Shown here one piece after another: positions 1 to 9,766 of a stretch of 64,000 nucleotides of DNA. The stretch spans positions 3,410,001 to 3,474,000 of the forward strand of contig NZ_CP058910.1 of NCBI RefSeq assembly GCF_013415885.1, given 5' to 3'. Positions within the stretch are counted from its first letter, which is position 1, and each line of letters starts with the position of its first letter. The stretch comes from Halosimplex rubrum. Its GTDB lineage: Archaea > Halobacteriota > Halobacteria > Halobacteriales > Haloarculaceae. Made by a program: the position numbers and the translations under genes. The notes under the pieces are model-generated. The model worked only from the letters and a program-made list of their open reading frames with translations, ran no database searches and was not told the origin of the DNA.

Positions 1-2714
1 TACGAGGAGTTCGCGGTGACGCTCGGCTCGGTGTAGCCCTCCTCGGTACCCCACTCGCCGTAGCCGGTCGTCGAGTAGGGGACCGTCATCGTGAACGTCC
101 CGTCGTCGCCGGTCTCGGCCTGCTGGCGGTAGACGAACGTCGAGTTCGTCGAGGGGACCTGCATCTCGACGGCCGCCGTGACCGTCGCGTTCGCGGGCCC
201 TTCACCCTCGATAGTCCCGCCGGGGACGCGCTCGAACGACTTCACCCAGTTCGAACTGCTGGGCTGGAGCGCGCCGAGCACACCGGGCTGGCGCAGCGAG
301 GTCTGGAAGGCGCCCTGAGCCGTCTTCCGGAGGCCGAGCTGGTACCGCTGCGATTCGAGGGAGCTGTTGTCGCTCCCGTGGACCATCCGGTAGTGCTCCA
401 GTGCGGGCACGCGCTCGCTCGGGAACTGCCCGACGCCGCCGATCTTCGAGGTCGGGTCGTTCTCGACGTACTCGCGGGCCTCGGCCATCGTGTCGAAGTT
501 GATCGTCCCGTTGCTCATCCGGATCTGCCCCTGCCCGCTCTGTGCGTCCTGTAGCTCCCAGTCGACGACGATGGGAGTCGGCTCCACGGCGCTCCCGTGG
601 AAGTTGTACAGGCGGACGGCCGTGGAGTTGTAGTACTTCTGATGCTGCAGTCGGAAGGTCTGGTAGGAGCCCTGCTGGCCGGTCTGGTAGTAGATCCAGT
701 CCCCTCTTTCGGTGTAGTACTCCCCTTGAGAGATGTTCCCGTCGGAGTAGAACTGGAAGGGCGCGAAGTACTTGCCGCCGAGCCGGAGCGACCCGCCGTT
801 AGGCCGGAAGTAGGACTGAGCGGTCTCGGTCATCTTCCAGTCGACCATGACGTAGCGGGTCTCGGCGTCATCCTCGCTCACGTCGTTCATGACCTCGTTG
901 GCGGCCGACTCGTTGGTCGACAGCAGGAAGTTCGCGGCCTGATCGGCGCCCTGCTGGAAGGGGTTCGCGACCGGTATCCGCTCGCCCATGACGGTGATGT
1001 AGTGGCCGTAGTCCCACCACGACATCACGCCGTAGTACCCGTCGGGATAGTCGAAGTCGTCGGTCCGTTCGAAGGTGCCGTAGTAGGGGACGGCGTCGGC
1101 GTTGTCCGCGCCGCCGTACGTGCCTTCATCCGGCGTGTTGCCCTCCATCCAGCCGAGCGTACCGTTCCAGGCGACAGAGCCCTGGCCGGCGCCCCCGCTC
1201 CCGCTCGTCGCCTGCATCGACACCGCCGCCGGATACACCAGCGGCGCGAACAGGACGAGGACGATCGCGACGATAGACAGTATCTGATAGGTTTCGATGT
1301 CGGTATCAGGTCGAGAGATGCCGGAGAACCTGGCGAGCTGTCCGATGACCAGCGCGGTCATCACGGCGACGGTGATCGAGAAGTAGTAGTCGAACCGGCG
1401 CTGCGTGAGCGTCGCCAGCAGCATGAACACCGTCCAGACGGCCAGCAGAGACCACTCGGCGTCAGGCCGGTCGTAGAAGTGCCGCACCGCGACGAACGCG
1501 ACGCCCAGGAGCGCGATGAAGAGCGTGAAGCCGTACTCGGGGAACAGGTTCCCGAACGGCATCGGCTGGGCCTCGGCGACGGTGCCCGCGGTGTCGGTCA
1601 CCGTGAGGCCGACGACGCGCGTCGTCTGGTTGACGAAGAATCCCCAGATGTCCGGAAGCGCCAGCGCCATCGCGACGGCGATACCCAGGAGGATACCGCC
1701 GACCGCGAGCGGGTACTGATAGTTCGGGAGGCCGCGAGATTCCCACTCCCGGGCGAACCAGGCGAGGAAGACGCAGCCGGCTGCGACGCCGAACGCCAGC
1801 ATCGGCTGGACCAGATTGTAGCTCGTCGCGCTGAGCGCGATCTCTTCCATCGCGGCGAGACTCAGGACGCCGGCCGTCGAGAGCGTGACCGCGCCCGCGA
1901 TGGCGACGTGTTCCGGGCTCTCGCCGTGGGCATACTCCGAAGCGAGTTCGATCGTGAAGTAGACGCCGAGGATGCCGAGGAGGAAGACGCCCGGCGCCCA
2001 CGTCCAGAGGTAGACCGCGATGGCGGTCCCTGCGACGATCGACCAGCCGACCGGGCGGCGCAGCGCGTCGACGTCGCGCGCTTTGAACAGCTCCCAGACG
2101 GGCTTTTCGTCCTGCGCGACCGACACCGCGACCATCGTCGCCAGGACCGCGATCGTCTGGAACAGGGCCTCGGCGACGTGGTGGTCGTAGAAGCCGACGG
2201 TACCGCGCTGTGCGAACGTGCTCCCCGCCAGCGCCAGCGCCGCGACCGCCACAACGCCGCCAAACTTGCCGGTGACCCGTTTCCCGATGAGATACACCGG
2301 AATGGCCGCGAGCGTTCCGAAGACCGCAGGGGCGAACAGGGCGACCAGACGGACAGTGTGATCGCTCGGGTTCCCGAGACCGACCACCAGGGCGGCGGTG
2401 GCGACCAGCTGGTCCATCACGGTACCGAACTGGCTGGAGTGCGTACCGGTTGGGAACCGCGTCCAGGGGTCGAACGGACTCGTCGCGGGCCAATGCTGGA
2501 CAGTGTACTGTACCATCCTGTAGTGATACCACGGGTCGTAACCGCCGAAATAGACGGTTCCCTCTACCAGAAAGTCCTTCCAGTTTCTGACCCGACTCCA
2601 CAGCATGAACCCGAGGAGGGCGACCATCGCCGGGATGTGGTAGTACTCACCCACCACGTCGGCGAGATCACCGGGTTCGTCGATGTTTTCGATCTGACCA
2701 CGCCACTGACTCAT
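1..2714 (-). CDS. aglB: Dolichyl-phosphooligosaccharide--protein glycotransferase AglB (3' end outside window)
   Basis: Catalyses the final step of archaeal N-glycosylation: transfer of the lipid-linked glycan to Asn of Asn-X-Ser/Thr sequons on the outer face of the membrane. 904 codons are visible from the ATG at 2714, and the frame is still open at base 1, so the C-terminus is missing. The N-terminal half has many hydrophobic segments, as in the STT3/AglB membrane domain. A GYDPWYH motif near residue 58 fits the first catalytic Asp motif. The STT3 hallmark WWDYG is at residues 566-570 (bases 1005-1019), followed by a soluble beta-rich domain. It is the only agl gene on this side of the cysteine-rich island. 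A TATA-like element lies about 25-35 bp upstream. The family call is firm. Confidence 0.95.
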   Translation of the reverse strand, partial: MSQWRGQIENIDEPGDLADVVGEYYHIPAMVALLGFMLWSRVRNWKDFLVEGTVYFGGYDPWYHYRMVQYTVQHWPATSPFDPWTRFPTGTHSSQFGTVMDQLVATAALVVGLGNPSDHTVRLVALFAPAVFGTLAAIPVYLIGKRVTGKFGGVVAVAALALAGSTFAQRGTVGFYDHHVAEALFQTIAVLATMVAVSVAQDEKPVWELFKARDVDALRRPVGWSIVAGTAIAVYLWTWAPGVFLLGILGVYFTIELASEYAHGESPEHVAIAGAVTLSTAGVLSLAAMEEIALSATSYNLVQPMLAFGVAAGCVFLAWFAREWESRGLPNYQYPLAVGGILLGIAVAMALALPDIWGFFVNQTTRVVGLTVTDTAGTVAEAQPMPFGNLFPEYGFTLFIALLGVAFVAVRHFYDRPDAEWSLLAVWTVFMLLATLTQRRFDYYFSITVAVMTALVIGQLARFSGISRPDTDIETYQILSIVAIVLVLFAPLVYPAAVSMQATSGSGGAGQGSVAWNGTLGWMEGNTPDEGTYGGADNADAVPYYGTFERTDDFDYPDGYYGVMSWWDYGHYITVMGERIPVANPFQQGADQAANFLLSTNESAANEVMNDVSEDDAETRYVMVDWKMTETAQSYFRPNGGSLRLGGKYFAPFQFYSDGNISQGEYYTERGDWIYYQTGQQGSYQTFRLQHQKYYNSTAVRLYNFHGSAVEPTPIVVDWELQDAQSGQGQIRMSNGTINFDTMAEAREYVENDPTSKIGGVGQFPSERVPALEHYRMVHGSDNSSLESQRYQLGLRKTAQGAFQTSLRQPGVLGALQPSSSNWVKSFERVPGGTIEGEGPANATVTAAVEMQVPSTNSTFVYRQQAETGDDGTFTMTVPYSTTGYGEWGTEEGYTEPSVTANSS

Positions 2715-3126
2715 TGACGGAACCAGTCCCATGGCGCGCATAAGCCTTTTGACTGGGAGGTGGATGACGAAATTATCGGCCTGGAACGGCTGAAACTCGG
2801 GATCCGGAGTTCCCAGCGAGCACCACAGGCTCACCGAACGGTCGATACGGCTGATTCAGGTCCGCCCCGATGGGGGCTGTCCGACGATCCGATGACTGGA
2901 CCCGGTACGCCAGGCCGGTTTGATAGAGCAGCGCCCAGATTAGGTGAAAATAAACGAGTCACCGCCACCAATAGATGAAACCAGGCGGTATCGTCGATCC
3001 GGCGCGAGGAGTCACTTCGGAGGGCGAGACGGCCACATTCGATGCATTAGTGAGTTGTCACGACCGTCTTCGGGAGCCGTATCGACAGGTTCGGTCAGAC
3101 GGACGATCGAGACCACGCTAGCGGCC
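2715..3126. other. Intergenic region between aglB and the isoprenyl-synthase-like gene
   Basis: About 410 bp that hold the aglB promoter at the left end. The rest shows no convincing gene: the short open frames at 2760-2978 and 2944-3279 have no recognisable protein features, and the second runs into the 3' end of the neighbouring gene on the other strand. An AT-rich patch near 2940-2955 resembles a promoter but leads to no convincing gene. This gap is the left border of the accessory island. Confidence 0.5.
2738..2750 (-). promoter_or_regulatory. Putative aglB promoter (TATA-like)
   Basis: Read on the minus strand, an A-run followed by GGCTTATG lies 24-36 bp before the aglB ATG. This is the usual TATA spacing for a leaderless or short-leader haloarchaeal transcript. 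Based on position and composition only. Confidence 0.35.
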
Positions 3127-3996
3127 TCACTCGGAAACCGTCTCGGAGACCCACGTGTCCAGATCGACAGCGATCAGCGGTTTGACCCGTTCGGCGGTGC
3201 GAGTCGGCAGTGTCTCGAGATGGTCGTCGAGCGCTTCCTTGCGCGCCCGCAGTCGCGCGAGCGCCTCGTCTTCCGGTAGCAGACTCCAGACGTTCCACGG
3301 ATACGCTTCGTCACCGTACTGGAAGCCGTCCAGCAGGAGCTGGTCCAGCTCGAAGTACAGGGTACCGATCGCCGCGTACCGCTCGACAGTCTCCCGGTCG
3401 GCGCCAGCGACGACACCGCACGTCCCGGTCATCGAACCGAACAAGTTCGCCTGTTTGGTGAGGATATCGAAGTACGTCTCGGCGCTCGGTTCTGCCGTCA
3501 GTTCGTCGGTGAAACACTCCACCATCCAGACGGCGTCGTCACACCAGTACGACCGCGCTTCGGGGCCCAGTCGGCCGACGTGATCGGCCAGGACCGGCAT
3601 CAGGTACTCGTGTGTGATGAACACCTCCGCTTCCTTCCCGTGGGCGACGTCACCGTCGATGATGTCGTCGGTGATATCGTAGTACTCCTGGACAAGGAGC
3701 GTGAACCGCAAGAGGTCCTCGAGTGCGTCCGTGTCCGAGTCCCGCGCGAGGTACAGCTGTTCGACGAGGTATTCGATCCGTCTGGTCGGCCGGCGTTTCC
3801 GCTTCGGGAGGGCGTCGTTCTGCGAGAACGCGATCGTTCGGACCCAGTCCCGTCCAGTTTCCGAGGGCATCTCGGCCACGATATCGTCTGTCAACCTGCG
3901 TATTTTCTCGTCGAACTCCTTCATTTCGGGCTTCAAGCGCTGAATCTCCTCGTCCGTCAGGAGTGTCGGTTTCCGTACGAGCACAGTGGTTGACAC
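3127..3996 (-). CDS. Isoprenyl diphosphate synthase-like protein with a degenerate second Asp motif
   Basis: 289 aa, GTG start. The all-helical order matches polyprenyl synthetases. A first Asp-rich motif DDIID (in ITDDIIDGD, about residue 112) is followed by a HGKEAEV segment resembling the usual R-R-G-x-P-x-x-H stretch. Then comes KQANLF, equivalent to the KTxxLF segment, and then GTLYFELDQLLLDGF, where the family normally has FQxxDDxxD. The second Asp of that motif is Gln and the spacing is altered. It may therefore be catalytically altered, or a prenyl-binding or terpene-cyclase-like relative. It is transcribed divergently from the three cysteine-rich secreted-protein genes across about 210 AT-rich bases, so co-function with them is plausible but inferred. 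A housekeeping GGPP synthase role is unlikely given the motif loss. Confidence 0.7.
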   Translation of the reverse strand: MSTTVLVRKPTLLTDEEIQRLKPEMKEFDEKIRRLTDDIVAEMPSETGRDWVRTIAFSQNDALPKRKRRPTRRIEYLVEQLYLARDSDTDALEDLLRFTLLVQEYYDITDDIIDGDVAHGKEAEVFITHEYLMPVLADHVGRLGPEARSYWCDDAVWMVECFTDELTAEPSAETYFDILTKQANLFGSMTGTCGVVAGADRETVERYAAIGTLYFELDQLLLDGFQYGDEAYPWNVWSLLPEDEALARLRARKEALDDHLETLPTRTAERVKPLIAVDLDTWVSETVSE

Positions 3997-4204
3997 CTTC
4001 CGGCCCTCGGTTAAAAAATTATCGACAAATTATATTATGAGTCGATAGGTGTCGGAGCGGCCGCCTGTTCGTCTCGACGGACTCCCGGGTAGCGCCGGTA
4101 GGCGCCGAACACCGTCGAGACACGACACTGAATCATCCGCTAGATCCATTTGATAGAGATAAACTTAACACAAATTTTATTACGTACCTACATTTATCGA
4201 TCGA
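3997..4204. promoter_or_regulatory. AT-rich divergent promoter region
   Basis: About 208 bp between divergent genes. On the minus side, AT-rich TATA-like stretches at about 4010-4023 and 4026-4040 precede the GTG at 3996. On the plus side, an AT-rich block at about 4158-4185 (AACTTAACAC followed by AATTTTATTAC) precedes the ATG at 4205. The composition is clearly more AT-rich than the surrounding chromosome. No clear operator palindrome was seen. Confidence 0.5.
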
Positions 4205-4852
4205 ATGCCTGCTATGTCAGATAGATATAACTCGACGACGAATTCGAGTGTCAATCGCCGGAACGTGCTTCGATCGATCGGTGCGACGGGTGCGACCGCG
4301 GCGGGGTTGAGTGGGGTCGCGTCCGCGGATACCCGTCGGGAGTTCAGTGCTGCCGAGATCGAGGCAGTCCGATCGGAGTATCGGGATCTCGAGTCGATCG
4401 AGTCCGCACTCGCCGAGGAACAGGAGCTACTCGACGCCCTCTCCGAAGAAGGTATCATCCCTCGAGCCACGGTGAGCACGCTGGGGATCGAAACGCTCGG
4501 CAAGCCAAGTTCGCCGGGAGATATGAACGTCACGGTGACGCCTGCAGACACTGACGACGGAGTGACCCCGAGGATCGTGGTCGACGGTGTGATCGGGGAG
4601 AGTGTCGTCAGTCTCAAGTTCGAACCCGATACGGAGAACGCCCAGGCGATCGTGAAGCGACCGTCCGCCTCCGAGTTCGAACAGCTGTACTCGGCGGGTT
4701 CGAGCGGTTGTGGCAGCGACTGCGACAACTGTAAGTGTACGTGCAGCTCGGTAAACATGTCTGTCTGCTGTAGCTGGGACTACTCGAAGAACCCCGCCGA
4801 GTGTCAGGGATACAAGCAAGAACCGGATTGTTACTGCAACGACGGCTGGTAA
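4205..4852 (+). CDS. Tat-exported pre-proprotein with 10-Cys C-terminal domain (paralogue A)
   Basis: 215 aa (an alternative ATG at 4214 gives 212). A Tat signal is visible: NRRNVLR at residues 17-23, a weakly hydrophobic Gly/Ala segment, and a cleavage site after ASA at residue 41. The pro-region has a charged helix (EAVRSEYRD, then LLDALSEEGII) and a beta-rich part (DMNVTVTP, then TPRIVVDGV). The last 47 residues (169-215) hold ten cysteines in a CxxxCxxCxCxC start, a Cys-Cys pair and a CYCNDGW end. There is no lipobox or C-terminal anchor, so the product should be released outside the cell. Architecture recalls precursors such as halocin C8 (Tat signal, long pro-region, small Cys-rich mature peptide), but the sequence is not recognisably that family. 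Paralogues B and C follow in the same direction. Function unknown; a secreted antimicrobial or signalling peptide is an inference. Confidence 0.85.
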   Translation: MPAMSDRYNSTTNSSVNRRNVLRSIGATGATAAGLSGVASADTRREFSAAEIEAVRSEYRDLESIESALAEEQELLDALSEEGIIPRATVSTLGIETLGKPSSPGDMNVTVTPADTDDGVTPRIVVDGVIGESVVSLKFEPDTENAQAIVKRPSASEFEQLYSAGSSGCGSDCDNCKCTCSSVNMSVCCSWDYSKNPAECQGYKQEPDCYCNDGW

Positions 4853-4910
4853 CAATCCGGGTCCGAGGTCCCGTCCTCGACAGACGAACTGCTGAAACGC
4901 GGCGATACAA

Positions 4911-4917
4911 TTTTTTT
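4911..4917 (+). terminator. Poly-T terminator after paralogue A
   Basis: A run of seven T on the coding strand, about 60 bp after the stop codon of paralogue A, in GC-rich surroundings. Archaeal transcription terminates at such T-runs without needing a hairpin. It suggests that A and B are separate transcription units. Confidence 0.45.
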
Positions 4918-5010
4918 CGGGAACTGGGATTTCGACCCGAGACTGCTGACGGGTCCCATCGGCTGCAAATCATGTCGCTAGTAATTAATAATAGGAAGTG
5001 ATTTATCCCG

Positions 5011-5021
5011 AAATATTTTTA
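5011..5021 (+). promoter_or_regulatory. Putative promoter of paralogue B
   Basis: AAATATTTTTA lies 31-41 bp before the ATG at 5052, in a local AT-rich stretch (4980-5030). This matches a TATA box for a short-leader transcript. Confidence 0.5.
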
Positions 5022-5051
5022 CAGCTTCGTTGAAACTTTCGACACGCCGCC

Positions 5052-5663
5052 ATGAACGATAGCAACGAAGACGTGACGGCAGAGCCGGGAATCAATCGAC
5101 GACGTGTCCTCCGCTCTATCGGCGCGACGGGCGCCACAGCGGCAGGGATGAGCGGTATCGCCTCCGCCGGATCTCGCGAGGAGTTCAGCGAATCGGAGGT
5201 CGAAGCCGTTCGAGCGGAGTATCGGGACCGATCGTCCGTTGTCGCCGCCCTCGCCGACGAGACGGCACTCCTCGAAACCCTGGCCGACGCCGACACCATC
5301 GACGAACCGTCCGCCGAAGCGGTCGGTATCGAGTCGGTGGGGTCCCCGGAATCGGCCACCGACATGAACGTCACCGTCCAGCCTACCGAAGACTCCGGCG
5401 ACGTGACACCGGAGATCGTCGTCGACGGCGACATCGACGGGACGACGGTCCAGATCCAGTTCGAACCGGAAGGGTCCGGAGCTCTCGCCGTCGTGAAGTC
5501 AGACGACTCGTCCGGCTACGATCAGGTGTACTCCGCCGCGGACGCCGGCTGTGGGAGCGACTGTGACGACTGTAACTGCACCTGCGTCTACAACAACTTC
5601 TCGACGCTGTGCGACGGGACGTACCGGCAGATCGCCGAGTGTCACTGTAACGACGGCTGGTGA
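5052..5663 (+). CDS. Tat-exported pre-proprotein with 8-Cys C-terminal domain (paralogue B)
   Basis: 203 aa. Closest relative of paralogue A: the Tat region NRRRVLRSIGATGATAAG is almost identical, with cleavage predicted after ASA at residue 39. The pro-region keeps EAVRAEYRD, LLETLADADTI, TDMNVTVQP and TPEIVVDGD. The last 37 residues (167-203) hold eight cysteines. They keep the CGSDCDDCNCTC block of A but are shorter, lack the Cys-Cys pair, and again end in Cys-x-Cys-Asn-Asp-Gly-Trp. Pro-domain conservation with a variable tail looks like tandem duplication followed by diversification of the mature peptide. It has its own AT-rich promoter, and no modification enzyme is encoded beside it other than the divergent isoprenyl-synthase-like gene. 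Function unknown. Confidence 0.85.
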   Translation: MNDSNEDVTAEPGINRRRVLRSIGATGATAAGMSGIASAGSREEFSESEVEAVRAEYRDRSSVVAALADETALLETLADADTIDEPSAEAVGIESVGSPESATDMNVTVQPTEDSGDVTPEIVVDGDIDGTTVQIQFEPEGSGALAVVKSDDSSGYDQVYSAADAGCGSDCDDCNCTCVYNNFSTLCDGTYRQIAECHCNDGW

Positions 5664-5803
5664 GCCGTCGATCGGGTGCCCGTGACGCCTCGGTGACGGA
5701 TCCAGTCTGGTGACCGGTCGGTCCGGGCCGGTCCACCAGCGGTCGTAGAGATCGAGAATTAGCAGATTTAAAATATGTAGGTCTGTAGTGTGCTTAAGAA
5801 AGT

Positions 5804-5816
5804 ATTAAATATATAC
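5804..5816 (+). promoter_or_regulatory. Putative promoter of paralogue C
   Basis: ATTAAATATATAC lies 29-41 bp before the ATG at 5845, within an AT-rich tract that begins near 5757. A strong TATA-like element. Confidence 0.55.
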
Positions 5817-5844
5817 CGTTTCAAACCACTGTCGGAGTTTGCCA

Positions 5845-6498
5845 ATGTCACGAAGCACCGAACGAGACGGTTTCAATCGGCGTAGCGTGCTCAAATCCGT
5901 CGCGGCAGGGACTGCAGCTACCGTCGGGGCCAGCGGGGTCGCGAGCGCGTCGTCCTCCGGTAGCTCGATCAGTCTCGCGACGAAGCGCGATATCACGGCC
6001 GGGTACAGGGACATCGACACCGTCCGCCAGCAGTTCCGGGCCCACAGAGACCTCCTGGAAGCCGCAGTCGAGGCTGGACACGTGGACGAGGCGTCGTTCG
6101 ATATCTTTGACATCGAGGTCGACGGGATGACCTCGGAGCGAGGCGACGGCCTCGGCTTCAACGCGCGCGAAGTCGACGGAGAAGTGATCCCCGAGATCCG
6201 CGTGCTCCACCGGACCGACGAGGGCGAAGTGATGTTCGGTATCCGACCGACGGAGGACGCCGGCTACGTGAACTACTTCCCCGCCGGGGAGGAAAACACG
6301 GTCGAACGCGTCTACGAGAGGAACTGGAGTTACAACTCGGCCGACTGCTGCGCTACCTGTATGACGTGTGGCGGCAACTGCAACGACAACGAGTCGTGCG
6401 AGACCCTGACGTCCTCCTGTTGTTGCTGGGCGACGTGTAAGAATATGACGTGCGCCGGCTACCGCTGCGTCTGTGAGAGCGACTGCGGCTGGCTGTAG
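5845..6498 (+). CDS. Tat-exported pre-proprotein with 14-Cys C-terminal domain (paralogue C)
   Basis: 217 aa from ATG 5845. The Tat motif is NRRSVLK (residues 11-17), with the signal ending at ASA (residue 35). The pro-region is diverged from A and B but keeps the same order: GYRDIDTV, LLEAAVEAGHVDE, VIPEIRVLH and a beta-rich end. The last 50 residues (168-217) hold 14 cysteines, including a Cys-Cys pair and a Cys-Cys-Cys run, and close with ESDCGWL. At 28% Cys, such a tail should be a tightly disulfide-bonded or metal-binding mini-domain. Because Tat usually exports folded proteins, some disulfides or metal may have to be in place before export. Function unknown; same class as A and B. Confidence 0.85.
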   Translation: MSRSTERDGFNRRSVLKSVAAGTAATVGASGVASASSSGSSISLATKRDITAGYRDIDTVRQQFRAHRDLLEAAVEAGHVDEASFDIFDIEVDGMTSERGDGLGFNAREVDGEVIPEIRVLHRTDEGEVMFGIRPTEDAGYVNYFPAGEENTVERVYERNWSYNSADCCATCMTCGGNCNDNESCETLTSSCCCWATCKNMTCAGYRCVCESDCGWL

Positions 6499-6702: not shown

Positions 6703-7512
6703 ATGCTCGAACAACTCAAACAGAAAGAGTATACGGGGTCAAACAGGTGTCTCCCCTGCACCGTGGTCAACACTGTTATCGCGCTCGTCGTCGGTGCAGT
6801 GATCGGGAGGTCCTCGAAACGAGCGGGCGCGGTGGCCATCGTCGTCTCGGGTGTGCTCATCTATCTGCGCGGCTATCTGGTCCCGGGGACCCCGACACTG
6901 ACGAAGGAGTACATGCCCGAGTGGGCGCTCGAATTGTTCGGCAAGGAACCGCCGACGACGGGCGGAATCGAAGTCGACAGGGACGAGGAGGAGGCGGAGT
7001 TCGAGCTGGACGCGGAGCAGTTCCTCCACGGTGTCGACGCCATCGAACCGTGCCCGGACGCGGACGACGACTGCCTCGTCGACGAGTTCGGCAGACGCTG
7101 GCACAGCGAGATGGAGTCGTTGCAGGGCCGAGAAGGCCTGAAACCGGTCGTGAGCGACCGGTTCGACCTGGACGAGTCGGAGTTCGAGATAGAACCCCAC
7201 GACGACGCCCGGTTGCTGATCGTCGAGGGCGACCACGTCGCGAAGTGGCCGTCAGAAGCGGCACTGATCGTGGATCTGGCAAGTGCGGGAATTCTCGCCG
7301 AGCGGTCGGATCGCTGGGACGACCTCGGAACCGTCCAGCGCGGGCAGGTCCTGCGAGGCCTGCGGATCTTCCTCGACACGTGTCCGACCTCGGACGAGCC
7401 GGTGACGATGGGCGAGGAGACGGTCGAATCCTGTTGCAGCACGCGCGACGTGGTCGCGGTCACCTGTGCGGAGAGCGGCGCGCGCCTGTTCGAACAGCCG
7501 ATCGCCGACTGA
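6703..7512 (+). CDS. Membrane-anchored protein with N-terminal CLPC motif and Cys-containing C-terminal domain
   Basis: 269 aa. The short N-terminus KEYTGSNRCLPCTVVN carries a CxxC motif directly before two transmembrane segments (about residues 19-34 and 40-58), followed by LVPGTPTLTKEYMPEW. The rest is an acidic soluble domain of about 200 aa. It has a second cysteine group near the C-terminus (DTCPTSDEP, ESCCSTRD, VVAVTCAESGARLFE). Cysteine pairs at both ends suggest redox activity or metal binding. It follows the cysteine-rich secreted proteins by 204 bp on the same strand but has its own promoter, so a role in their oxidation or in immunity is only a hypothesis. The protein also looks like a conserved haloarchaeal family and may be unrelated to the island. 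Confidence 0.75.
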   Translation: MLEQLKQKEYTGSNRCLPCTVVNTVIALVVGAVIGRSSKRAGAVAIVVSGVLIYLRGYLVPGTPTLTKEYMPEWALELFGKEPPTTGGIEVDRDEEEAEFELDAEQFLHGVDAIEPCPDADDDCLVDEFGRRWHSEMESLQGREGLKPVVSDRFDLDESEFEIEPHDDARLLIVEGDHVAKWPSEAALIVDLASAGILAERSDRWDDLGTVQRGQVLRGLRIFLDTCPTSDEPVTMGEETVESCCSTRDVVAVTCAESGARLFEQPIAD

Positions 7513-7598
7513 GGCGGTCCGACGGCGCGAGCGCGGTCCGGCCGGTCACCGCGGGATCGAACGGAAACCATATCTTCCCGGTCACCCTCACCGGAGGC

Positions 7599-8528
7599 AT
7601 GCGCGTCTCCGTCGTGCTCTGCGAGCACACGATGGACCGCTACGACGCGGTCACCGAGGCCGCTCGTAGCGTCCTCGACCAGACGTACGACGACGTGGAA
7701 CTCGTCTTCGTCAGCGACGGCAACCCCGAGGTCTACGAGCGATTCGAGGCCGACTTCGGCGACCGCGAGGACGTCGTCACCCGGTGCAACGACGGGAACC
7801 GCGGCCTGCTCGTCAGTCGCAACAACGGCGCCGAGGCCGCCAGCGGCGACGTGGTCGCCTTCCTCGACGACGACGCGGTCGCCCACCCCGAGTGGATCGA
7901 GCGGCTCGTCGCCACCTACGAGGACGACGACGCCGTCGCTGCCGGGGGCCGGATGGCCCCCATCTGGGTCGACGGTCCGGTCGACTTCCTGCCGGCGGAG
8001 TTCTACTTCCTGATCGGCGCCACCTACCGCGGGTTCGGCGACGGCCGCGACACCCCCGGGGAGGTCCGCAACACCAACGGGTCGAACATCTCCTTCCGGC
8101 GGGACGTGTTCCTCGACCTGGGCGGGTTCGACGACGAGATCGGCGGCCGCAAGGGCGACAAGAACCTCCAGGGCGGCGAGACGGAGGTCTGCGCCCGGCT
8201 GCAGGCGGAGTACGGCGAGGGCGTCAGCTACGTCCCCGACGCGAAAGTTGGTCACAAGGTGTTCGCCTACCGCACCGAGCCGGCGTGGCTGCTCGACCGG
8301 GCGTTCTGGCAGGGCTACTCCAAGCGCGGCATGCAGCAGTTCGTCCCCGGTTCGGCCGAAGAGGAGGGCGACTTCCTCGGAAAGATCCTCGGCGAGTACG
8401 TTCCGGGGCGGCTCGCCGGGCTGCTCCGCGACCCCGACGCCACCGCCGCGAAACAGCTCGTCTGGCTCCTCGTCCTGACCGGCGTCGTCGGCCTCGGCTA
8501 CCTCTACGGGGTCGTCAAGTGGCGGTGA
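7599..8528 (+). CDS. Family 2 glycosyltransferase with C-terminal membrane segment (AglG/AglI-like)
   Basis: 309 aa. Begins MRVSVVLCEHTMDRYDAV, a GT-A start, followed by VLDQTYDDVELVFVSDG and the metal-binding VVAFLDDDAV motif (DxD type). After the catalytic domain, a C-terminal hydrophobic segment (LVWLLVLTGVVGLGYLYG) anchors it to the membrane. This is the arrangement of haloarchaeal Agl transferases that extend dolichol-phosphate glycans on the cytoplasmic side. The reading frame is open far upstream, but ATG 7599 is the first codon giving a proper GT2 N-terminus. The GT4 gene 8615-9766 follows on the same strand. The sugar specificity cannot be read from sequence. Confidence 0.85.
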   Translation: MRVSVVLCEHTMDRYDAVTEAARSVLDQTYDDVELVFVSDGNPEVYERFEADFGDREDVVTRCNDGNRGLLVSRNNGAEAASGDVVAFLDDDAVAHPEWIERLVATYEDDDAVAAGGRMAPIWVDGPVDFLPAEFYFLIGATYRGFGDGRDTPGEVRNTNGSNISFRRDVFLDLGGFDDEIGGRKGDKNLQGGETEVCARLQAEYGEGVSYVPDAKVGHKVFAYRTEPAWLLDRAFWQGYSKRGMQQFVPGSAEEEGDFLGKILGEYVPGRLAGLLRDPDATAAKQLVWLLVLTGVVGLGYLYGVVKWR

Positions 8529-8614
8529 GCTGCGGGTGAGGACGACCGACGAGCGGGACGACCGGCGGTGGGGATGAGTAGCGTTAAGCGACTGCCGGAG
8601 CCACCCCATCGGTA

Positions 8615-9766
8615 ATGGCGGACCTGCCCGATGTGTGCGTCGTCACGCACCCGCTGGCGGCGGCCGGCGAGAACGCCACGCGGAGCCTGCTGGACATCCT
8701 CTCGGCGGTGACCGGCGTCGCGCTCGTCACCGCTGACCTGCCCGCCGACTCGGAGATCCGCGACCGCCACGAACTCGTCGAACTCACGCGGAAGGGCGCC
8801 GGCGACTCCGTCGCCGTCGCCGCCGTCCGATTCGTCCTGAACCAGCTCCGGATGTGTCGCGTCCTCGCCGGCCGCGACGAGGAGGTCGTCCTCTTCTACG
8901 GCGCCACGTCGTACCTCCTGCCGATCCTGTTCGCCCGGGCCGTCGGGAAGACCGTCCTCGTCGAACCGCGCGGCGACGTGCCGCTGACGCTCCGCATCGC
9001 CTGGGAGGAGTCGCTCCCCTCGCCCGTCGCGCGGGCGCTGGCGGGACTCGTCCGCGCGCTCGAACGCGCGGGCTTCGCGGCCGCCCACGGGGTCGTGACC
9101 TACACCCCCTCGATGGCCGAGCAACTCGACCTCGACCCCGACGGCCCGGACGTGTACCCGACCGGCGCGCGCTACGTCCGGACCGACGCGTTCGACGTGC
9201 GGACGCCGCTCGAAGACCGCGAGCGTCGCGTCGGCTTCCTCGGCCGACTCGACGAGGAGAAGAACGTCCGCGAACTCGCCGCCGCGGCGAAGGGCCTGCC
9301 CGACGACGTGACGTTCACCTTCATCGGCGACGGCGACCTTCGCGAGTGGCTGGAGACGGAACTCGCGGACGAGATCGAGGCCGGCCAGGTGGAGATGCGC
9401 GGGTGGGTCGACCACGACGACGTGCCCGCCGAACTCGACCGGCTGCGACTGGTCGTCCTCCCCTCCGAGCCGACGGAGGGGCTGCCGACGACGATCCTCG
9501 AGGCGCTGGCCTGCGGGACGCCTGTCTACGCGACGCCGGTCTCGGGCGTCCCTGACGTGGTCCGCGACGGCGAGACAGGCTTCCTGATGGACAGCACCGA
9601 CCCCGACGACATCCGCCGGGAACTGCTCGCGGTCCTCGACCGCGAGGACCTGCCCGCGATCAGCCGCAACGGGCGCGAACTGATCGAATCGGAGTACAGT
9701 TTCGAGGCTTCGCAGGACCGGTATCGGGAGATACTGCAGCGAGTCGTCCGGCGTCGCCGCCGGTAG
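8615..9766 (+). CDS. Family 4 glycosyltransferase
   Basis: 383 aa, GT-B fold. The C-terminal half has the donor-binding features of GT4: RRVGFLGRLDEEKNV, FTFIGDGDLREWL, then PSEPTEGLPTTILEALACG with the E-x7-E region, and GVPDVVRDGETGFL. No transmembrane segment is evident, so it probably acts on membrane-linked glycans from the cytoplasm. A GTTAAG element about 30 bp upstream may be a weak promoter. It lies directly after the GT2 gene, consistent with a shared role in surface glycan assembly. Acceptor and donor unknown. Confidence 0.88.
   Translation: MADLPDVCVVTHPLAAAGENATRSLLDILSAVTGVALVTADLPADSEIRDRHELVELTRKGAGDSVAVAAVRFVLNQLRMCRVLAGRDEEVVLFYGATSYLLPILFARAVGKTVLVEPRGDVPLTLRIAWEESLPSPVARALAGLVRALERAGFAAAHGVVTYTPSMAEQLDLDPDGPDVYPTGARYVRTDAFDVRTPLEDRERRVGFLGRLDEEKNVRELAAAAKGLPDDVTFTFIGDGDLREWLETELADEIEAGQVEMRGWVDHDDVPAELDRLRLVVLPSEPTEGLPTTILEALACGTPVYATPVSGVPDVVRDGETGFLMDSTDPDDIRRELLAVLDREDLPAISRNGRELIESEYSFEASQDRYREILQRVVRRRRR

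What the first reader, a model, noticed from the sequence alone, without database searches (positions are those of the whole stretch)
3127..6498. Candidate new secreted-peptide system: three Tat-exported Cys-rich paralogues beside an isoprenyl-synthase-like gene
Seen: three genes in a row encode 200-217 aa proteins with a twin-arginine signal, a shared pro-domain (EYRD helix, then a VTPxIVVD-type strand) and different Cys-rich tails (10, 8 and 14 Cys). A divergent gene encodes an isoprenyl diphosphate synthase-like protein. All have AT-rich promoters. Known: halocin C8 is made as a Tat-exported precursor whose Cys-rich C-terminus is released. Inference: this is a halocin-like or other secreted peptide family, possibly with prenylation or a lipid partner. 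The arrangement does not match any system I recognise.
Basis: partly seen in the sequence, partly recalled or inferred. Interest (0 to 1): 0.85.

Follow-up and report, generated by a model that had tools for sequence, protein, structure and literature searches.

The report
Archaeal tryptophan-prenylation system for secreted peptides
A salt-loving archaeon carries an enzyme gene that probably attaches an oily isoprenoid tail to the very last amino acid (tryptophan) of three exported, disulphide-rich proteins encoded beside it, a modification of peptides so far described only in bacteria.

Summary
In detail: three Tat-type precursors with Cys-rich tails (10, 8 and 14 Cys) lie beside a divergent isoprenoid-synthase-like gene. 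The precursors belong to a large, undescribed haloarchaeal family: a folded ~120-residue pro-domain plus a hypervariable tail (even Cys count in 50 of 52). The enzyme is rare (12 genes in 391 haloarchaeal genomes), yet 7 of these genes adjoin this family. The decisive find: every family precursor beside the enzyme has Trp as last or next-to-last residue (DGW, DGW, GWL, GWW, PGW, VGW, GGW, SNW, CGW; 9/9), against 2/43 elsewhere (P=1.5e-8). At three other enzyme loci, unrelated neighbours also end in W or W-X. The enzyme has the isoprenyl-diphosphate-synthase fold, keeps the first Asp-rich motif, has lost the second and has an invariant Gln there: hallmarks of the bacterial Trp prenyltransferases ComQ and PalQ (PalQ modifies C-terminal Trp and prefers GW). 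Best reading: an archaeal ComQ/PalQ-like enzyme prenylates the C-terminal Trp of Tat-exported disulphide-rich proteins. This is inferred; no chemistry has been shown. Whether the product is a halocin, pheromone or lipid-anchored protein is open. Most family members lack the enzyme, and a divergent enzyme subgroup has no recognised substrate.

The parts
3127..3996 (-). ComQ/PalQ-like (trans-IDS-like) putative tryptophan prenyltransferase, 289 aa, cytosolic
   Evidence: AF2 model pLDDT 89.8; Foldseek to isoprenyl diphosphate synthases, TM 0.67-0.70; profile hits to nonaprenyl-PP synthase E=8e-8
3649..3687 (-). First aspartate-rich motif (FARM): EYYDITDDIIDGD
   Evidence: Invariant E-Y-x-D-I-x-D-D-x-x-D-x-D in 9 relatives; aligned with FARM of GGPP synthases
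3319..3342 (-). Pseudo-SARM: QLLLDGFQ in place of the second Asp-rich motif
   Evidence: Q218, D222, Q225 invariant in A3; aligned with QIQDDLLD of GGPPS; hhalign suggests another register
4205..4852 (+). Precursor 1: Tat signal, pro-domain, 10-Cys tail, C-terminal ...CYCNDGW
4337..4699 (+). Folded pro-domain of precursor 1 (3-4 helices plus five-stranded sheet)
   Evidence: AF2 pLDDT mostly above 90 for residues ~50-160; no solved structure alike at E<=0.001
4700..4849 (+). Cys-rich tail of precursor 1
   Evidence: even Cys parity in 50 of 52 family tails
4844..4849 (+). C-terminal Gly-Trp codons, predicted prenylation site
   Evidence: W at or next to the end in 9/9 enzyme-adjacent family members vs 2/43 others
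5052..5663 (+). Precursor 2: Tat signal, pro-domain, 8-Cys tail, C-terminal ...CHCNDGW
5655..5660 (+). C-terminal Gly-Trp codons of precursor 2
5845..6498 (+). Precursor 3: Tat signal, pro-domain, 14-Cys tail, C-terminal ...SDCGWL (Trp penultimate)
6487..6495 (+). C-terminal Gly-Trp-Leu codons of precursor 3
6703..7512 (+). Two-TM membrane protein (EYTGxNRCxxCT / YLRGYLVPGTPxLTK ... CCST), accessory of unknown role (immunity, export or disulphide handling?)
   Evidence: Homologue adjoins family precursors also in L034, L037, L099, L131; family in 267/292 haloarchaeal genomes; two hydrophobic segments
4150..4204 (+). AT-rich promoter region of precursor 1 (similar stretches at about 4980-5040 and 5760-5820)
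   Evidence: sequence; composition; no archaeal promoter test was run

Best explanation
The locus encodes an archaeal peptide/protein tryptophan-prenylation system. A cytosolic trans-isoprenyl-diphosphate-synthase-like enzyme, working like bacterial ComQ and PalQ, binds an allylic diphosphate at its first Asp-rich motif. It uses a remodelled second motif (invariant Gln and lone Asp) to hold the indole of the Trp at or next to the C-terminus of three precursors. The donor would be GPP, FPP or GGPP, supplied by the genome's two canonical isoprenyl diphosphate synthases. The precursors fold around a conserved pro-domain, carry a disulphide-rich tail, and leave the cell by Tat, so that a membrane-active Cys-rich product with a prenylated C-terminus reaches the cell surface or medium. 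Shown by sequence: gene anatomy, family membership, enzyme fold and motif state, co-localisation, Trp-enzyme correlation, even Cys parity. Inferred: catalysis, donor, timing (before export), disulphides, proteolytic release of the tail, and biological role (antagonism of other haloarchaea first, then signalling or lipid anchoring).
For: The enzyme is rare (12 genes in 391 genomes), but 7 of the 12 lie 37-214 bp from a family precursor. All 9 family precursors in those 7 loci have W in the last two residues, vs 2/43 elsewhere (P=1.5e-8). One exception (L125, CGW) is in a genome that has the enzyme elsewhere; the other ends in STWC. The G345 locus, found after the idea was formed, gave CCGTCGW. 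Three other enzyme loci lack the precursor family but still have a neighbour with W in the last two residues: Tat protein ...NNSWI (L149), and two related 34-aa Halorhabdus peptides ...RDEEYARLGVW / ...RDEEYAKLAPW with coding-like substitutions. Background is 2.5% terminal W and 3.7% in the last two. Enzyme: isoprenoid-synthase fold; FARM invariant; SARM lost, with an invariant Gln aligned to the Gln just upstream of SARM and only the second Asp kept. Published: ComQ keeps FARM and only the second SARM Asp (PMC5331326); PalQ Q197 binds the indole NH, C-terminal Trp is required, GW is favoured (PMC10853753, PMC13290415). Even Cys parity 50/52. Two canonical synthases in the genome could supply donors.
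Against: No biochemical evidence. The pseudo-SARM register is not settled: two alignments agree, hhalign shifts it by three. Precursor 3 (GWL) and G221 (SWI) have Trp penultimate, which PalQ would refuse, though ComQ accepts positions 2-4 from the end. A divergent enzyme subgroup (G017 twice, G443, G369) has no recognised W-ended neighbour. Most precursor-family members lack both enzyme and Trp, so prenylation is an add-on, not the core function. The 34-aa Halorhabdus peptides are short and weakly supported as genes.
Confidence: 0.75

Rival explanations
1. Halocin-like antimicrobial system in which the tail is the toxin and prenylation boosts membrane activity. This is a role within the best explanation rather than an alternative chemistry.
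For: Tat export, pro-domain plus hypervariable disulphide-rich tail and tandem paralogues; one family locus also has a HalC8-like precursor (L131); halocins C8 and S8 are released proteolytically (PMC12893001); prenylation raised antimicrobial potency of test peptides (PMC13290415).
Against: No activity data; no homology to HalC8 beyond the Tat signal; no clear immunity gene.
Confidence: 0.4
2. Archaeal ComX-like pheromone: the prenylated product signals between cells.
For: ComQ-ComX and PalQ-PalX precedents; high tail diversity, as in ComX pherotypes (PMC4008528).
Against: No histidine kinase recognised beside the window cluster, where the flanking genes tested are AglB and glycosyltransferases; substrates are ~200-aa disulphide-rich proteins, not short peptides. 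Other loci were not scanned for kinases.
Confidence: 0.2
3. C-terminal lipid anchor: prenyl-Trp holds an exported disulphide-rich protein on the membrane or S-layer; nothing is released.
For: Modification is predicted exactly at the C-terminus of Tat-exported proteins; pro-domain and tail may stay together; the cassette lies in an N-glycosylation island with AglB; archaeal C-terminal lipid attachment to Cys has been reported (PMC13290415).
Against: Hypervariable tails and tandem paralogues suit conflict or signalling better; most family members have no such anchor.
Confidence: 0.25
4. The enzyme makes a small isoprenoid (ordinary diphosphate synthase or terpene synthase) and the adjacency to precursors is incidental or regulatory.
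For: Sequence similarity is detectable only to canonical isoprenyl diphosphate synthases.
Against: SARM is lost, so IPP condensation is unlikely; the genome has two canonical synthases; terminal Trp tracks the enzyme (P=1.5e-8), which incidental adjacency does not explain.
Confidence: 0.08

Closest known systems
PalQ / PalX (Paenibacillus alvei)
   Same: Isoprenoid-synthase-superfamily enzyme with FARM and a Gln adjoining SARM; substrate gene adjacent; Trp at the extreme C-terminus, GW favoured (PMC10853753, PMC13290415).
   Different: PalX is a short NHLP-leader RiPP with an 8-residue core in a bacterium, with a histidine kinase gene in the cluster, and PalQ keeps D200/D204 at SARM. Here: archaea, Tat-exported ~200-aa disulphide-rich proteins, no NHLP match, tandem paralogues.
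ComQ / ComX (Bacillus)
   Same: FARM kept; SARM reduced to the second Asp; Trp 3-4 residues from the end (2-4 tolerated) of a very variable adjacent precursor (PMC5331326).
   Different: Quorum-sensing peptide with ComP/ComA; a 2014 census found none outside Firmicutes (PMC4008528). Here no ComP/ComA was seen next to the window cluster, and Trp is terminal or penultimate.
Halocin C8 precursor family (TIGR04449)
   Same: Tat-exported haloarchaeal precursor with Cys-rich C-terminus.
   Different: No TIGR04449 match in 47 members; pro-domains do not align; HalC8-type tail is hydrophobic.
Canonical haloarchaeal GGPP/polyprenyl synthases (PF00348)
   Same: Fold and FARM.
   Different: Second DDxxD lost; 8 of 9 relatives give no Pfam PF00348 hit at E<=0.01; separate group beside the GGPP synthases in the tree.

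Membership tests
trans-IDS-like tryptophan prenyltransferases (ComQ/PalQ kind) | Isoprenoid-synthase (trans-IDS) fold | tested here: met
   AF2 pLDDT 89.8, Foldseek TM 0.67-0.70 to FPP/GGPP/nonaprenyl synthases
trans-IDS-like tryptophan prenyltransferases (ComQ/PalQ kind) | First aspartate-rich motif conserved | tested here: met
   DDxxD invariant in all 9 relatives and in all full-length members of the larger set
trans-IDS-like tryptophan prenyltransferases (ComQ/PalQ kind) | SARM lost or remodelled, Gln beside it for indole NH | tested here: met
   No DDxxD; invariant QxxxDxxQ in A3; register supported but not
trans-IDS-like tryptophan prenyltransferases (ComQ/PalQ kind) | Neighbouring substrate gene with Trp at or near the C-terminus | tested here: met
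   10 of 10 core-group loci with assembled flanks; not found in four genes of a divergent subgroup
trans-IDS-like tryptophan prenyltransferases (ComQ/PalQ kind) | Transfers a prenyl group to Trp | not testable with these tools
   needs in vitro or in vivo assay
trans-IDS-like tryptophan prenyltransferases (ComQ/PalQ kind) | Detectable sequence kinship with ComQ or PalQ | not tested
ComQXPA quorum-sensing locus | Adjacent histidine kinase and response regulator | tested here: not met
   Window neighbours are AglB, the NRCxxC membrane protein and glycosyltransferases; only the window neighbourhood was examined for this
Halocin C8-like bacteriocins (TIGR04449) | Halocin C8 domain in the C-terminal part | tested here: not met
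   0 of 47 members
Halocin C8-like bacteriocins (TIGR04449) | Tat-exported precursor with Cys-rich C-terminus | tested here: met
   (by signal motif; export itself not tested)
Halocins in general | Growth inhibition of other haloarchaea | not testable with these tools
   needs bioassay
NHLP-leader RiPPs (PalX kind) | NHLP leader domain | tested here: not met
   No such Pfam or NCBIfam match in 47 members

The most novel reading that the evidence does not exclude
Archaea have their own peptide/protein tryptophan-prenylation pathway. A ComQ/PalQ-like enzyme family lipidates the C-terminal Trp of exported, disulphide-rich proteins built on a previously undescribed haloarchaeal pro-domain scaffold, giving a combined disulphide-rich and prenylated secreted product, or a new kind of C-terminal lipid anchor, not known from any domain of life.
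Probability: 0.65. Interest if true: 0.9.

Novelty: new variant of a known kind. Interest (0 to 1): 0.83.

Why it matters
Peptide prenylation on Trp is described in the papers I could read only from bacteria; the 2014 ComQXPA census found nothing outside Firmicutes (PMC4008528), and a 2026 review names only bacterial trans-IDS-like enzymes (PMC13290415). An archaeal branch acting on large Tat-exported disulphide-rich proteins would open archaeal lipopeptides, a new protein lipid anchor and a salt-tolerant biocatalyst to direct test. It also exposes a large unnamed haloarchaeal family of hypervariable secreted Cys-rich proteins, likely part of the archaeal antagonism or signalling repertoire.

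Tried and rejected
Pfam and NCBIfam scans of precursors, enzyme and membrane partner gave only weak Tat or polyprenyl-synthase hits. Halocin C8 membership was rejected. The membrane partner as the obligatory pair was rejected: it is near-universal in haloarchaea and adjoins only 5 of 46 precursor loci; none of the 29 homologous partner loci inspected had a Tat/Cys precursor recognisable within its ~1.5 kb flanks (the one pattern match, in L068, looks spurious). No homologues on plasmids or viral contigs by tblastn or pattern scan. The first genome-contig scan with the precursors found nothing; the scan with the enzyme gave named hosts Haloarchaeobius iranensis, Halorhabdus salina and a Haloarcula MAG. 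A PDB fold search with the pro-domain gave nothing significant. My codon-based gene caller failed on AT-richer genomes and was replaced by profile searches on ORFs. L147 is an ordinary GGPP synthase and was excluded. HFX_0892 (PMC12893001) was considered as a relative; the text I searched gives no sign of a Cys-rich tail, and its sequence was not compared.
Full report
Observation. The three Tat-type precursors (4205-4852, 5052-5663, 5845-6498, +) and the divergent isoprenoid-synthase-like gene (3127-3996, -) are present as described. The host is a complete 4.48 Mb haloarchaeal genome, and it holds no further relatives of the precursors. Curated libraries name none of these proteins beyond weak Tat and polyprenyl-synthase matches.

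The precursor family. A profile of the precursors finds full-length relatives in several haloarchaeal families, sometimes five or more per genome. I read 46 loci with 52 precursors. They share a conserved middle domain, modelled for precursor 1 as three to four helices and a five-stranded sheet with pLDDT mostly above 90, followed by a Cys-rich tail with pLDDT near 40, that is, flexible or unmodelled. Nothing solved resembles the domain at E<=0.001. Tails differ widely in length and pattern, but the Cys count is even in 50 of 52 (P=6e-13 if independent, which related sequences are not). That suggests fully paired cysteines, hence disulphides (inference).

The enzyme and where it occurs. A single-sequence search found the window enzyme's family in 8 of 292 genomes; a ninth hit, L147, is an ordinary GGPP synthase. 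Profile searches found 12 genes in 11 of 391 genomes and five more genes in four further genomes of the window's family, Haloarculaceae (the family name is inferred from the named Halorhabdus and Haloarcula hits). Named hosts include Haloarchaeobius iranensis, Halorhabdus salina and a Haloarcula MAG. Seven genes lie 37-214 bp from a precursor of the family: window, G088 twice, G236, G174, G232 and G345.

The terminal tryptophan. Every precursor of the family in those seven loci has Trp as its last or next-to-last residue: CNDGW, CNDGW, CGWL, CGWW, CPGW, GVGW, GGGW, CSNW and CGW (9/9). Of 43 precursors elsewhere two do (Fisher P=1.5e-8). One, L125 (CGW), is in G236, which carries the enzyme at another place; the other ends STWC. 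Counted per locus it is 7/7 against 2/39 (P about 7e-7, my hand calculation; one search used 41 control loci and gave 5e-7). G345 was found after the idea was formed and fitted it. The three other core loci lack this precursor family, yet each has a neighbour ending in W or W-X: a Tat-type protein ...NNSWI in G221 (L149), and in two Halorhabdus species a convergent 34-aa peptide ...RRKDRDEEYARLGVW / ...RRKQRDEEYAKLAPW, whose C-terminal half shows several synonymous changes while the flanks diverge. In 599 ORFs from the same loci terminal W occurs in 2.5%. A divergent enzyme subgroup (G369, G017 twice, G443) has no recognised W-ended neighbour; transporter-like genes (ABC or MFS) lie beside it. 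Three more genes are cut by contig ends.

What the enzyme is. It is modelled with high confidence as an isoprenoid-synthase fold. Its first aspartate-rich motif is invariant (EY[YF]DIxDDxxDxD). The second is gone, replaced by invariant QxxxDxxQ. Two alignments place this Gln on the Gln just upstream of SARM and its Asp on the second SARM Asp; a third shifts the register. Published work on bacterial Trp prenyltransferases describes this state: FARM kept, SARM reduced in ComQ to its second Asp, and a Gln adjoining SARM that contacts the indole NH (PMC5331326; PMC10853753; PMC13290415). PalQ acts only on C-terminal Trp among the positions tested in PMC10853753 and prefers GW or GGW (PMC13290415 adds N-terminal Trp); ComQ tolerates Trp two to four residues from the end. 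The genome has two canonical synthases that could supply donors.

Mechanism proposed. The cytosolic enzyme prenylates the terminal Trp of the folded precursor, which then leaves by Tat; the Cys-rich, lipidated product acts outside the cell or at its surface. Catalysis, donor length, release of the tail and biological role are inferred. Candidate accessory genes: the two-TM NRCxxC protein after the window precursors (also beside precursors in L034, L037, L099 and L131), and, in G174 and G232, an exported PQQ-propeller protein plus an exported protein with an HExxH motif that could be a maturation protease.

Comparison and novelty. It works like ComQ/ComX and PalQ/PalX, but in archaea and on Tat-exported ~200-residue disulphide-rich proteins. 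The 2014 census saw comQXPA only in Firmicutes; a 2025 study mentions 'comX homologs' among BAGEL4 hits shared by archaea and bacteria but set them aside (PMC12352652). I found no description of an archaeal ComQ-like enzyme with substrates, though subscription papers and preprints were not searchable. It is not a halocin C8 member. I rate it a new variant of a known kind, with strong genetic and no chemical evidence.

Noticed in passing
window 6703-7512 and L034, L037, L099, L131: Two-TM 'EYTGxNRCxxCT' protein, near-universal in haloarchaea (267/292 genomes, 1-9 copies) and without a Pfam family; one paralogue adjoins Cys-rich precursors in at least four lineages.
   Followed up: partly
L131 11653-12408: HalC8-like precursor (TIGR04449, E=5e-6) about 5 kb from a pre-family precursor and its NRCxxC partner.
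   Followed up: partly
L119 2532-5161; L121 3051-5904: Two genera share an exported PQQ-propeller protein and an exported HExxH (HELVHALQ/HELTHALQ) protein beside the W-precursor: candidate maturation protease, no Pfam match.
   Followed up: partly
L179 5738-8654: Two divergent enzyme paralogues about 1 kb apart beside an ABC-2-type permease and a membrane protein with HEWGH motif resembling a peptide metalloprotease; substrate not found.
   Followed up: partly
L150 7992-8096 (-); L151 8215-8319 (+): Conserved 34-aa Halorhabdus peptides ending in W, convergent with the enzyme gene, with coding-like substitutions.
   Followed up: yes
window 3-2732 (-), 7584-9766 (+); L101 8153-10840: The cassette lies inside an N-glycosylation island (AglB/STT3, GT2, GT4); an AglB-like gene is also next to the G088 cassette.
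   Followed up: partly
G159, G193, G202, G206, G301: One family-level group of haloarchaea carries several scattered, strongly diverged copies of the Cys-rich precursor family per genome, without the enzyme.
   Followed up: no
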